Source of the DNA: Zanthoxylum bungeanum
Lineage: Eukaryota > Streptophyta > Magnoliopsida > Sapindales > Rutaceae
Length of the DNA: 64,000 nt
Direction of reading: 5' to 3'
NCBI GenBank assembly: GCA_019454045.1
Contig: SKCR01007813.1
Location: 558,001-622,000 of the forward strand
A model generated the notes under the pieces. It was not told the DNA's origin, ran no database searches, and saw only the letters and a list, made by a program, of their open reading frames with translations. The number at the start of each line of letters is the position of its first letter. Positions within the stretch are counted from its first letter, which is position 1. Below, in pieces: positions 54,589 through 59,923 of this stretch. The position numbers were made by a program, and so were the translations under genes.

Positions 54589-55239
54589 TTAAAGGTTAAG
54601 ATCCAAATTAATCCGACGCCTCTTACCACGATCGTCCTCAGACCAATTTATCTTTGAAAGGATATGGTCAATTTGTGGTTCATAGGCTAAGATTTGGTCA
54701 ATTAGATCCTGAGCAGTTCTGGCAGTGAAGAGGAGTTCCTTTAAAGGTTTTGACACGAACCCATTTCTCCGAGCATCATCAAGAAACACACAAAGAAAAT
54801 CATAAAATCCTTCAACGTTATACAATCCAAGCGGTTTCTGGTGTATGTTCAGGTTCGCCCAAAATAACACTGTAAAAATCTCCAATGTACCCAAGCCACC
54901 TGACAAAGCAATAAAAGCATCAACACAGTTAATCATTTCTACTAGTTGTTCAGACATATCTGCCATGATTAACTCTTCTCCGTTTGATGGTTCAATAAGA
55001 TTTGCCTCTGCCAAGGGTTTTGGGATGATTCCCAAAACGTGACTGCCTCCTTCCTGTACAGCCTTTGAAACGATCCCCATAAGTCCAAGATTGCCTCCGC
55101 CATATACTAAGTGCATATTCCTTGCAGCTAAGACTCGACCCAATTCTTGTGCTGCTTCTACGTATTGTGGCTTAACACCAACACTAGTACCGCAAAACAC
55201 ATAGATGTTTTCAAGCCGTCTTCTTGAAGTGGCTTTCAT
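54589..55239 (-). CDS. Intronless LOG-like protein (cytokinin riboside 5'-monophosphate phosphoribohydrolase family)
   Basis: Full-length 216-residue frame, the usual LOG length. LOG enzymes release active cytokinin bases from nucleotide precursors in the cytosol. The N-terminal Rossmann part is well kept: IYVFCGTSVG near residue 12, then VYGGGNLGLMG near residue 45. The catalytic box PGGxGTxxE reads SGGLGTLEI (about residues 113-121), so Pro became Ser and the final Glu became Ile. The upstream family segment with a conserved Arg is also changed (EQLVEMIN). Cytokinin activation is therefore doubtful. Plant LOG genes have several introns; this one has none. It lies after integrase and the Cys-rich gene in the Athila-like element, on the same strand, ahead of the terminal purine tract, which suggests retroelement capture of a LOG mRNA. 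A nuclear retrocopy hit by LTRs is the alternative. Confidence 0.8.
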   Translation of the reverse strand: MKATSRRRLENIYVFCGTSVGVKPQYVEAAQELGRVLAARNMHLVYGGGNLGLMGIVSKAVQEGGSHVLGIIPKPLAEANLIEPSNGEELIMADMSEQLVEMINCVDAFIALSGGLGTLEIFTVLFWANLNIHQKPLGLYNVEGFYDFLCVFLDDARRNGFVSKPLKELLFTARTAQDLIDQILAYEPQIDHILSKINWSEDDRGKRRRINLDLNL

Positions 55240-55487
55240 GTTTTACTCTGGATGTCTTCAAAAGTGCAATGATGAGTTGAATTTATTACACCTAAAAAGG
55301 GTGAGTAAAATAATAGCACTAGTACCTGCCAAATGATAATTATTAGTTAACAGTAAAATAAATCGTGATAGTAAAAAAGGTCTGGATCCTGTCGGAGAAA
55401 ATAAAAGAAAACAACAAAACAAATTACAATTATTAGGAAAAGACAAAGAGATATAATATTTATAATTATTTACGGCTTAATTGACGT
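55240..55487 (-). other. Spacer between the Cys-rich gene and the LOG-like gene
   Basis: About 250 AT-rich bp with no gene. Nothing here resembles an LTR end or target duplication, which favours both genes belonging to one element. Confidence 0.45.
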
Positions 55488-55715
55488 CTATGCGTCAGGG
55501 ACAAGCTTCCCATCCAATTTTCTTATAAATTGGCAAACAGAGTCTTTTTGAGTCAGATTCCCGAGACTTAACTGTTGTCTTTCCTTTTGGAATTGTGTAT
55601 GCAATTTACGAATGGCTATATGAACATATCCACTGGGATACGTCTCAAAAGTTGAAGATATATAATCTACAGACTCCTTACTCAAGCCATCCCTAATGAA
55701 TTTAATTCTGTCTTC
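55488..55715 (-). pseudogene. 3' part of the Cys-rich nucleic-acid-binding-like gene (after solo-LTR insertion)
   Basis: About 75 codons to a stop at 55488. The start of this piece is the copy of the TCTTC target duplication (55711-55715). In the same frame as the upstream piece, it continues with a segment of the form E-D-R-x-x-F-I-x-x-G-L, then a mixed polar C-terminal tail with no further Cys cluster. Similar plant-virus proteins also have an F-I-x-x-G-like segment after the zinc-finger-like part; this is family knowledge and not proof. The joined product is not written out here. Confidence 0.6.
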
Positions 55716-58579: not shown

Positions 58580-58845
58580 TCTTCGCGATTATCAGACACC
58601 ATTAATAAAGAACGACAACGAGTATTGCAATTCCAGCGTGCACATTTATAACAAACACCCATTTGCTTAGCTCTACGTTTCTTTGCATAGGTGCTTCTTC
58701 CAAAACCAGGCAGATGTGAAATAAAAGAGTCAGAAGACTCACCTACCAATTGGACCCGTGCTTCAATTACCCAACGAATATCATTAGGAACACCATGGAT
58801 CGTTAGTAATCTCATCCGTTCCAAGCGAGCTTTGTAGACTTTCAT
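58580..58845 (-). pseudogene. 5' part of a small Cys-rich gene resembling plant-virus nucleic-acid-binding proteins, in an Athila-like element
   Basis: About 88 codons before the solo LTR. A helical N-terminal half is followed by a Gly-Arg-Ser-Thr-Tyr-Ala motif (residues 49-54), a run of basic residues (55-58) and four Cys at 65, 68, 73 and 77 (C-x2-C-x4-C-x3-C). This order, a GRSxxA-basic motif directly before a Cys cluster, is what I know from the small 3'-proximal proteins of carlaviruses and vitiviruses, several of which act as silencing suppressors. In the retroelement the role is unknown. Another in-frame ATG lies at 58905, but a TAA at 58855-58857 separates it, so the gene may have lost its first ~20 codons to a nonsense change. 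It is 170 bp downstream of integrase. Confidence 0.6.
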
Positions 58846-59018
58846 CAGAGAGATTTAAGGGAGAGAAGGAAATTGCTTGTGAAGATTTGTGAGAACTTCC
58901 TCCATCCTAAAATGTCTTAATATGCAAAAACTAAACACAAAAAATTAAATCATACCAAATCAAAATATATACACAAATTGCATCGGTTGCCTCCCTACTA
59001 GCGCTAAGTTTAACGTCG
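58846..59018 (-). other. Post-integrase spacer with GGGAGGCAACC block
   Basis: On the minus strand, shortly after the integrase stop, comes AGCGCTAGTAGGGAGGCAAC, a block I associate with the same position in plant Athila elements. An A/T-rich stretch and the possible lost start (ATG 58905) of the Cys-rich gene follow. Confidence 0.55.
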
Positions 59019-59923
59019 TCAGCTAGACGTGACTTCTCGATCGTTAGGCTGGATCTGAAAGTGTGACACTTTCTTTTTGTCGCTCAAATGATTCTCCCAG
59101 TAGTGCTTGACACGCTGACTATTAACCTTGAATGTTTCGTTGGTGTTGGGATCCAGTAACTCAACAGCTCCATATGGTAAAACCTGAGTGATCATAAATC
59201 GACCTGACCACCTTGATTTCAACTTTACAGGGAAAAGCTTCAACCGTGAATTATACAACAACACTTGCTGCCTTGGTTCCAACTGTCTGTGCACTATTTT
59301 TTGATCATACCATTTCTTGGTATTTTCTTTGTACAATCTGGCATTCTCATAAGCCTGTAAGCGAAATTCCTCCAATTCGTTGTGTTGGTGAAGTCTTTTC
59401 TCTTATGCAGCTTGTGAATCAAAATTCAACTTCTTTAGTGCCCAGTACGCCTTGTGCTCAAGCTCAACTGGCAGATGGCACGCTTTCTCAAACACCAATC
59501 GATATGGGGACATAACAATGGGTGTCTTGTAAGCTGTTCGGTAGGCCCATAATGCATCATCTAGTTTTGTTGACCAGTCATTCCTTGTTGATCCAACGGT
59601 TCTCTCCAAGATTCTTTTGATTTCTCTATTTGAAACTTCAACCTGTCCATTTGACTGTGGATGATAAGCAGTTGCAACCTTGTGAGTAACTCCGTATTTG
59701 GATAGGAGTGCATCAAAGTATTTGTTGCAGAAATGTGATCCACCATAACTGATAATTGCCCGAGGTGTTCCGAACCGAGTGAAAATGTTCTTTTTCAGGA
59801 ATTTGATCACCACTTTTGAATCATTGGATGGTAGTGCAATTGCTTCAACCCATTTGGAGATGTAGTCTACAACAACCAGGATGTACAGGTTTCCGAATGA
59901 TGGAACAAAAGGTCTCATGAAAT
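59019..59923 (-). pseudogene. Athila-like integrase, C-terminal two thirds
   Basis: Starts at the junction with the Tat-like LTR (residues FMRPFVPSFGN) and continues through the core: VVVDYISKWVEA with the first catalytic Asp, then ISYGGSHFCN where the second catalytic Asp is replaced by Tyr, then the SNGQVEVSNREIKRILE segment with the catalytic Glu. An in-frame stop at 59403-59405 precedes a conserved C-terminal domain (SRLKLFPVKLKSRWSG) that reads on in the same frame to 59019. The zinc-binding N terminus and everything upstream are cut off by the insertion. It is not functional, but similarity to Athila integrases is strong along its length. Confidence 0.88.

What the first reader, a model, noticed from the sequence alone, without database searches (positions are those of the whole stretch)
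54589..59923. Athila-like retrotransposon apparently carrying two cargo genes after integrase: a viral-type Cys-rich gene and a LOG-like gene
On one strand, after integrase and before the terminal purine tract, lie a small basic Cys-rich gene resembling plant-virus nucleic-acid-binding/silencing-suppressor proteins and a full-length intronless LOG-family gene. Athila elements normally have an env-like frame there. A retroelement pairing a possible silencing suppressor with a possible cytokinin-pathway protein would be a new type of cargo. I know of no such description, but I could not search.
Basis: partly seen in the sequence, partly recalled or inferred. Interest (0 to 1): 0.92.

Follow-up and report, generated by a model that had tools for sequence, protein, structure and literature searches.

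The report
Jumping gene carrying two extra genes
A plant jumping gene present in thousands of copies carries two extra, evolutionarily maintained genes, one resembling a plant-virus protein family known for blocking RNA silencing and one resembling the enzyme that activates the growth hormone cytokinin, which suggests the element may influence its host's defence and growth.

Summary
On the minus strand an Athila-type LTR retrotransposon carries, between integrase and 3' LTR, a Cys-rich gene (CRP; 182 aa in intact relatives) above the Pfam cut-offs for flexivirus nucleic-acid-binding proteins, then an intronless LOG-family gene. Elsewhere in the same 3.96-Gb genome the pair is abundant: 8,529 places match a CRP-end/LOG-start spacing pattern, control 0. 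Complete copies have LTRs, an Athila-type PBS, 5-bp target duplications (4 of 7) and LTR divergence down to 0.3%. Both genes show purifying selection (dN/dS about 0.26-0.38; controls 0.6-1.4). Of 14 LOG-bearing copies without an integrase core, 10 keep CRP. Relatives of both are listed for Populus, Acer, Xanthoceras and Orobanche. LOG-like frames in gypsy elements are already in print; I found no description of the virus-like CRP or of the pair. Best reading: a selected two-gene accessory module; silencing suppression and cytokinin activation are inferred.

The parts
59019..59919 (-). Athila-type integrase: part of the core (59919-59403) and C-terminal domain (59402-59019); cut at 59924 by a plus-strand element
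   Evidence: PF00665 52.9 bits for 59924-59403; homologous region in other copies
58580..58905 (-). Cys-rich (virus NABP-like) gene, first piece; in-frame stop near its start
   Evidence: PF01623 31.1 bits and PF05515 24.3 bits for 58854-58587; start and stop read; natural full-length relatives of 182 aa
55716..58579 (+). solo LTR (TGTAGGCACTG...GTCCTACA) inserted in the Cys-rich gene, flanked by TCTTC on both sides
   Evidence: repeat structure
55488..55715 (-). Cys-rich gene, second piece (treated apart from the first)
   Evidence: aligns to residues 108-182 of the natural relative P0002 at 89% in locus L001, which is this place
54589..55239 (-). LOG-family (PF03641) intronless frame, 216 codons plus stop; signature decayed to SGGLGTLEI
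54489..54502 (-). internal purine tract (AGGTTTGGGGGAGG), site of insertion of the next element
   Evidence: the same junction is uninterrupted in other copies
45486..54488 (-). inserted LTR element with LTRs 54488-52081 and 47900-45486, gag 51192-49723 and no pol frame seen; flanks GGAGG/TGAGG
44243..45485 (-). remaining 3' region of the Athila element, ending in the true polypurine tract AGGTTTGGGAGTG (44255-44243)
42135..44242 (-). 3' LTR of the Athila element (TGATGAG...GGTCA)
   Evidence: matches both the 5' and 3' LTRs of other copies
59924..62957 (+). 5' LTR of another element cutting the integrase, followed by TGGTGACTCCACTGGGGA

Best explanation
The window holds a decayed, nested copy of a high-copy Athila-type LTR retrotransposon whose 3' part carries a two-gene accessory module: CRP (182 aa, basic, predicted helical, with a KKRRAK stretch and a CX2CX4CX3C cluster, related to flexivirus nucleic-acid-binding proteins) followed by a LOG-family phosphoribohydrolase (217 codons). 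Shown here: both genes belong to the element, occur together in thousands of places, are kept by purifying selection, and persist in most sampled copies that lack the integrase core. Inferred: CRP binds the element's RNA or small RNAs and dampens RNA silencing of the element, as several viral CRPs do. LOG releases active cytokinin in the expressing cell, favouring the dividing cells through which new insertions are inherited. The structural part is near certain (about 0.97). I put silencing suppression by CRP at about 0.45, and cytokinin activation by LOG serving element transmission at about 0.4.
For: Gene identity: (of 55 CRP relatives that I chose from the listings, 47 match PF05515 and 44 match PF01623 at E<=1e-3). 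Cargo status: CRP in 16 of 20 LOG-chosen copies and 5 of 6 more (L003-L008); LOG in 11 of 12 CRP-chosen copies; joint spacing pattern at 8,529 places with control 0; LOG 24-mer at 18,577 and CRP 24-mer at 5,181 places. Complete elements: PBS TGGCGCCGTTGCCGGGGA or near variants, PPT and LTR ends; exact 5-bp TSDs in 4 of 7 copies (2 without, 1 not testable); gag, RT, RNase H and integrase domains in L016. Selection: NG86 dN/dS for LOG 0.260 (29 copies without stops; 0.325 for all 32) and CRP 0.377 (19 copies); shifted frames 0.60/1.38 (LOG, 29 copies) and 0.74/1.14 (CRP, 18 copies); noncoding 0.69-0.92; ML omega 0.312 and 0.346. LOG in core-less copies with CRP 0.217. Breadth: CRP and LOG relatives both listed for Populus, Acer, Xanthoceras and Orobanche; one Acer yangbiense gene model joins parts of both (P0030). 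Recent activity: LTR divergence 0.0027 (L014). Function lead: viral CRPs of this kind are silencing suppressors (PMC12172455 passages; PMC10335701 passages).
Against: No expression, silencing or enzyme data. CRP-virus homology rests on moderate Pfam scores (24-31 bits). The AlphaFold model is weak (pLDDT 70.9, pTM 0.34), and its best viral match, a Garlic virus A nucleic-acid-binding fragment, is not significant (E 0.58); no PDB match at E<=0.001. The scan of viral contigs with the CRP alignment found no relative. The window copy has lost the LOG signature and a working CRP frame. 4 of 20 LOG-chosen copies lack CRP, and the LOG 24-mer is commoner than the CRP one, so the two genes need not act together. 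Most LOG frames in CRP-chosen copies are frameshifted or diverged. LOG in copies with the integrase core has a weaker signal, 0.437 (11 copies, two of them with stops). The window lineage's LOG has SER/SEQ-L where the two Arabidopsis proteins have QRK/ERK, so its activity may differ. LOG copies were ranked by protein score, which favours intact ones.
Confidence: 0.5

Rival explanations
1. CRP is an ancestral Athila protein (a nucleocapsid-like or RNA-packaging, chaperone or nuclear-import factor). Its likeness to viral NABPs reflects shared descent in the other direction, or convergence on a basic zinc-finger; silencing suppression is not its job.
For: CRP relatives are numerous in plant sequence (684 at E<=10, 120 listed). 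51 of 55 aligned ones are 181-183 aa (I had picked mostly full-length ones). In Orobanche minor P0228 CRP sits in frame behind what looks like an Athila protease end (label by recall). In P0002 the Pfam matches cover residues 38-120 and 66-97 only. Its Cys spacing is CX2CX4CX3C in 47 of 55.
Against: Both viral families are matched above curated cut-offs in the window piece, and no other family reaches E 1e-3 in the 55 scanned (in the set of 11, one member touches SHQ1 at 0.0031). LOG copies lacking CRP amplified too (L015, L028 with LTR divergence of about 0.028), so CRP is not strictly required in cis.
Confidence: 0.33
2. LOG acts on nucleotide or immune signalling (SLOG-type nucleotide hydrolase) rather than on cytokinin supply.
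For: PF18306 (SLOG cluster 4) also matches (51.6 bits; 64.7 bits in L016). The window lineage differs from the two Arabidopsis proteins at the RK position.
Against: Best solved relatives are At2g37210 and At5g11950, which I recall as plant LOG-type proteins. The LOG signature PGGLGTLEE is exact in 20 of 32 genomic copies and in 70 of 120 listed relatives.
Confidence: 0.22
3. Both genes are passengers picked up by chance and multiplied with the element, without function.
For: LTR elements do capture host mRNA pieces (established knowledge); many copies are decayed, including this one.
Against: dN/dS of 0.26-0.38 against controls of 0.6-1.4; conserved motifs across relatives; CRP kept in 10 of 14 LOG-bearing copies without an integrase core.
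Confidence: 0.04
4. The two genes are independent insertions next to an Athila fragment, not parts of the element.
For: The locus is heavily nested.
Against: Constant order and spacing in other copies; LTR, PBS, PPT and TSD around the whole unit.
Confidence: 0.01

Closest known systems
Gypsy/Athila-lineage elements with LOG-like extra frames (YgdH domain in Citrus sinensis, C. clementina and Populus trichocarpa gypsy consensuses; PMC9289625 section 12, citing Steinbauerova 2011)
   Same: A gypsy-type element with a LOG-family domain; by recall, Steinbauerova 2011 mentions two Athila-like elements with LOGL4 similarity (paper not held)
   Different: No virus-like CRP is mentioned in the section read. 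Here CRP-LOG pairing, copy number, selection and retention in core-less copies are shown.
Carlavirus / allexivirus / mandarivirus Cys-rich nucleic-acid-binding proteins (Pfam PF01623, PF05515)
   Same: Basic stretch next to a Cys cluster; Pfam scores above the curated cut-offs; in mandariviruses too the gene lies at the 3' end of the genome (PMC12172455 passages)
   Different: 182 aa with conserved parts on both sides of the Cys cluster; lies in an LTR retrotransposon; no test of nucleic-acid binding or suppression
Plant LOG cytokinin-activating enzymes (At2g37210, At5g11950 structures; LOG naming recalled)
   Same: PF03641 family; about the same length; signature exact in 20 of 32 genomic copies
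   Different: Intronless; set apart from these two in a small tree; the window lineage differs at the RK position
Orchid gypsy elements with an AlkB-like RNA demethylase (PMC9289625 passages)
   Same: An LTR retrotransposon with a cargo protein whose viral counterparts occur in Alphaflexiviridae and Betaflexiviridae
   Different: Different cargo, single gene, different lineage
Sunflower Tekay 5' extra frames and VANDAL anti-silencing proteins (PMC11728184 passages)
   Same: Extra transposon proteins proposed (Tekay) or reported (Vandal DNA transposons) to act on silencing
   Different: Different proteins and positions; no flexivirus relation mentioned in the passages seen

Membership tests
Athila lineage, Ty3/gypsy | LTRs with 5-bp target duplication | tested here: met
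   4 of 7 copies have exact 5-bp TSDs; 2 do not; 1 not testable
Athila lineage, Ty3/gypsy | tRNA-Asp type PBS TGGCGCCGTTGCCGGGGA (family association recalled) | tested here: met
   exact in L011, L014, L015, L016, L017, L023; near variants in L009, L010, L024; not found in L012
Athila lineage, Ty3/gypsy | gag, RT, RNase H, integrase in gypsy order | tested here: met
   copy L016, searched in pieces
Athila lineage, Ty3/gypsy | RT/INT phylogenetic placement among reference lineages | not tested
   No reference set at hand; assignment rests on PBS, PPT and recalled integrase likeness
Flexivirus NABP/CRP (PF01623, PF05515) | Pfam score above the curated cut-off | tested here: met
   31.1 > 20.9 and 24.3 > 23 bits for the window piece; 44 and 47 of 55 relatives at E<=1e-3
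Flexivirus NABP/CRP (PF01623, PF05515) | same fold as viral members | tested here: inconclusive
   Weak model; top BFVD match Garlic virus A NABP, E 0.58
Flexivirus NABP/CRP (PF01623, PF05515) | nucleic-acid binding and silencing suppression | not testable with these tools
   bench assay needed
LOG phosphoribohydrolase | PF03641 domain | tested here: met
   102 bits, residues 55-184, whole profile 1-131
LOG phosphoribohydrolase | PGGxGTxxE signature (recalled) in the window copy | tested here: not met
   SGGLGTLEI
LOG phosphoribohydrolase | PGGxGTxxE signature in other copies | tested here: met
   PGGLGTLEE exact in 20 of 32 copies; PGGLGTFEE in 1 more; the other 11 depart, the window's own copy among them
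LOG phosphoribohydrolase | cytokinin nucleotide hydrolysis | not testable with these tools
   enzyme assay needed

The most novel reading that the evidence does not exclude
An old lineage of plant LTR retrotransposons carries a virus-like counter-defence and host-manipulation module: an RNA-silencing suppressor homologous to flexivirus CRPs, plus a cytokinin-activating enzyme. Together they would let the element escape silencing and keep its host cells dividing so that new insertions reach the germline. Pol-less derivatives keep the module and spread it.
Probability: 0.27. Interest if true: 0.92.

Novelty: new variant of a known kind. Interest (0 to 1): 0.76.

Why it matters
Extra frames in plant gypsy retrotransposons are reported to lack known domains most of the time (PMC9289625 introduction passage), so their roles are unknown. 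Here two are recognisable, paired, under selection and present in thousands of places, so the role of such cargo can be tested directly with two standard assays (GFP-patch silencing suppression and LOG activity). If CRP suppresses silencing, it would be, as far as I know, a first proven anti-silencing protein of a plant LTR retrotransposon, and it would link flexivirus CRPs to retroelements. If LOG is active, a transposon would be making growth hormone.

Tried and rejected
Rejected: independent insertions beside the element (excluded by copies); functionless passengers; terminal position of the purine tract at 54.5 kb.

Led nowhere: the CRP alignment against viral contigs gave 182 pattern hits and no relative. 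Fold searches of the CRP model gave nothing significant. tblastn of LOG in phage records hit 22, and the 3 listed are annotated LOG-family proteins at 37-41% identity. A search for the host's own cellular LOG exons, to root the capture, did not complete (all busy). So the LOG tree has only two cellular members and says little on the number of captures. Papers looked up but not held: Steinbauerova 2011, the SPCFV NaBP paper. Literature searches whose listings showed no description of the CRP or the pair: 20 of 455 listed; none found; none found; 20 of 44 listed; none found; I saw titles and starts of abstracts there. Not done: RT phylogeny, expression, deep-branch dN/dS between species.
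Full report
WHAT IS THERE. The window lies in a 3.96-Gb genome (G000:C7810:558001-622000), a plant by its genes. On the minus strand the order is: integrase core part (59919-59403) and C-terminal part (59402-59019); a Cys-rich gene (CRP), whose piece 58854-58587 scores 31.1 bits to Carla_C4 (cut-off 20.9) and 24.3 bits to Viral_NABP (cut-off 23); and a LOG-family frame 55239-54589 with PF03641 at 102 bits. The best solved relatives of the LOG protein are the plant proteins At2g37210 (E 1.3e-53) and At5g11950 (E 3e-45).

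CORRECTIONS TO THE OBSERVATION. The CRP gene here is broken by an in-frame stop near its start (read) and by a solo LTR at 55716-58579 on the other strand, flanked on both sides by TCTTC. The purine tract at about 54.5 kb is internal. A separate LTR element (LTRs 54488-52081 and 47900-45486, gag 51192-49723) sits in it, with flanks GGAGG and TGAGG. The Athila sequence resumes at 45485 and ends in AGGTTTGGGAGTG followed by a 3' LTR beginning TGATGAG at 44242. A plus-strand element begins at 59924 inside the integrase. The window LOG has SGGLGTLEI, where 70 of 120 listed relatives have exactly PGGLGTLEE.

OTHER COPIES. A search of the same genome with LOG scored 150 of 69,808 first-look candidates and listed 150 matches; with the CRP piece it scored 150 of 35,695 and listed 150 matches. 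I fetched 20 LOG places spread down the first list (10 kb each; one 8.6 kb). CRP lies upstream on the same strand, at near-constant spacing, in 16 of 20 (not L015, L018, L025, L028; in L012 only partly). Of the six best-scoring other places held at 3.65 kb (L003-L008; L002 is the same copy as L009), 5 have CRP and L004 has not. LOG follows in 11 of 12 (not L031), often with frameshifts. Exact-pattern counts over the whole genome: a CRP 24-mer at 5,181 places, a LOG 24-mer at 18,577, and a CRP-end 16-mer followed after 270-299 bases by a LOG-start 16-mer at 8,529, each with 0 in the reversed control. The words were chosen from the fetched copies, and exact matching makes the counts lower bounds. 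By eye, 15 of the 25 CRP 24-mer places on contigs C16-C154 have the LOG 24-mer 884-933 bases downstream on the same strand.

THE ELEMENT. In complete copies the 5' LTR ends in GGTCA or a variant and is followed by TGGCGCCGTTGCCGGGGA or near variants, which I recall as the Athila tRNA-Asp type primer site. The internal part ends in AGGTTTGGGGGTG before the 3' LTR in 11 of the 12 copies searched for it. Of 7 copies whose 3' flank I fetched, 4 have exact 5-bp target duplications (L014 ATTGC, L015 ATTAT, L017 GTGGA, L024 GGACT), 2 do not (L011, L023) and 1 could not be tested (L012). Copy L016, searched in pieces, has gag, RT, RNase H, integrase zinc-binding and integrase core domains upstream of CRP, and a LOG frame with PF03641 at 125.9 bits. 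LTR-pair divergence could be measured in 13 of 20 copies and runs from 0.0027 (L014) to 0.121 (L013), so some insertions look very recent.

COPIES WITHOUT THE INTEGRASE CORE. Among the 20 LOG-chosen copies the core was found in 6; 9 have only the integrase C-terminal part, all with CRP; 5 have neither by tblastn, one of them (L012) with partial CRP. So CRP is present in 10 of 14 copies without the core. In the 9, the end of a 5' LTR lies only about 2.4-2.6 kb before the integrase C-terminal part, too little for gag plus a full pol (inference). In L023 one frame runs through a gag-like end, a protease-like part and the integrase C-terminal part (labels by recall), and no Pfam family, RT included, was found in it at E 1e-3; I tested this only in L023. 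Among the 12 CRP-chosen copies the core was found in 9. In the LOG tree, copies with and without the core are mixed, which points to recombination or repeated loss.

SELECTION. Nei-Gojobori estimates on copies aligning over at least 93% of the reference, from 39 distinct loci: LOG 0.325 (32 copies), 0.260 without 3 copies that have stops; CRP 0.377 (19 copies, 8 with stops, stops masked); integrase 0.403 (11 copies, 6 with stops). Controls: LOG in shifted frames 0.60 and 1.38 (29 copies); CRP 0.74 and 1.14 (18 copies, L039 left out); 1,192 columns of the noncoding 3' region of 20 copies 0.69-0.92 in three frames. By class: LOG 0.217 in core-less copies with CRP (13), 0.437 in copies with the core (11, two with stops), 0.291 in copies without integrase and CRP (5); CRP 0.361 (10, no core) and 0.421 (8, core). 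ML omega on fixed trees, without the copies just named as left out: 0.312 (LOG) and 0.346 (CRP). Caveat: LOG copies were ranked by protein score, which favours intact ones. The values also mix selection in active lineages with neutral decay after insertion, so selection in active lineages may be stronger.

RELATIVES ELSEWHERE. The CRP piece found 31 proteins and the CRP alignment 684 at E<=10 (120 listed), among them Xanthoceras, Populus, Acer, Rhamnella and Orobanche gene models. LOG found 419 at E<=1e-3 (120 listed), among them Xanthoceras, Populus, Acer, Reevesia and Orobanche. One Acer yangbiense gene model contains parts of both CRP and LOG (P0030), and one Orobanche minor model joins what looks like a protease end to CRP (P0228; protease label by recall). 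Of 55 CRP relatives that I chose, mostly full-length, 47 match Viral_NABP and 44 Carla_C4 at E<=1e-3, and no other family does. 51 of 55 are 181-183 aa long and 47 have CX2CX4CX3C. Exact PGGLGTLEE occurs in 70 of 120 listed LOG relatives and in 20 of 32 genomic copies. In a small tree the element LOGs fall apart from the two Arabidopsis proteins, but with two cellular sequences this is weak.

STRUCTURE. The CRP model is helical and of modest quality (pLDDT 70.9, pTM 0.34). Its top match in the viral library is a Garlic virus A nucleic-acid-binding fragment, not significant (E 0.58). There was no PDB match at E<=0.001.

MECHANISM. Viral CRPs of carla-, allexi- and mandariviruses are described as silencing suppressors and pathogenicity factors (PMC12172455, passages seen; PMC10335701, passages seen, allexiviruses). 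By analogy, CRP may protect the element's RNA from silencing. LOG-family enzymes regulate cytokinin activity (PMC9289625 section 12; that they release active cytokinin is established knowledge), so an element-borne LOG could keep expressing cells dividing. Both steps are inference. That core-less copies keep the genes fits products that help the element family, but also fits a role in RNA packaging or transport.

PRIOR KNOWLEDGE. PMC9289625 (passages; section 12) reports the YgdH (LOG) domain in gypsy consensuses of two Citrus species and, with a looser filter, Populus trichocarpa, and cites Steinbauerova 2011, which is not held. I recall its abstract mentioning two Athila-like elements with LOGL4 similarity. 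PMC7264820 (passages), PMC6317226 (passages) and PMC11728184 (passages) describe extra frames in general; a virus-NABP-like one does not appear in the passages seen. Searches for CRP in retrotransposons showed none in their listings. So LOG cargo is known; the virus-like CRP, the pairing, its scale and its selection appear undescribed in the library searched, which lacks most subscription journals.

VERDICT. A real, conserved, selected two-gene accessory module of an Athila lineage; the window copy is a decayed, nested example. New variant of a known kind; function open but directly testable.

Noticed in passing
L009, L011, L013, L014, L017, L019, L020, L023, L024: Copies without an integrase core keep the integrase C-terminal part, CRP and LOG; in L023 a gag-like end, a protease-like part and the integrase C-terminal part form one frame, with no RT or integrase core family found.
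   Followed up: partly
L015:4677-5972, L025:4903-5982, L028:3438-4601: LOG-bearing copies without CRP carry other frames upstream of LOG (a gag-like end with a CDICN.NHPRD motif and an acidic protein).
   Followed up: no
P0228 (Orobanche minor): CRP in frame behind what looks like an Athila protease end, so CRP may be made as part of a polyprotein there.
   Followed up: no
window 45486-54488: Inserted LTR element with a gag but no pol frame seen, containing tandem arrays of 40-nt (48.0-48.5 kb) and 29-nt (49.1-49.4 kb) units.
   Followed up: no
window 28936-31998 and 37398-40449: LTR-like direct repeats of about 3 kb, 97.5% alike, flanking about 5.4 kb.
   Followed up: no
window 61807-62298: Four tandem copies of a unit of about 124 bases within the LTR of the plus-strand element.
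   Followed up: no
window 25307-26045: Sequence 77% alike to part of the Athila 3' LTR at 42245-43000, so a further piece of this or a related element.
   Followed up: no
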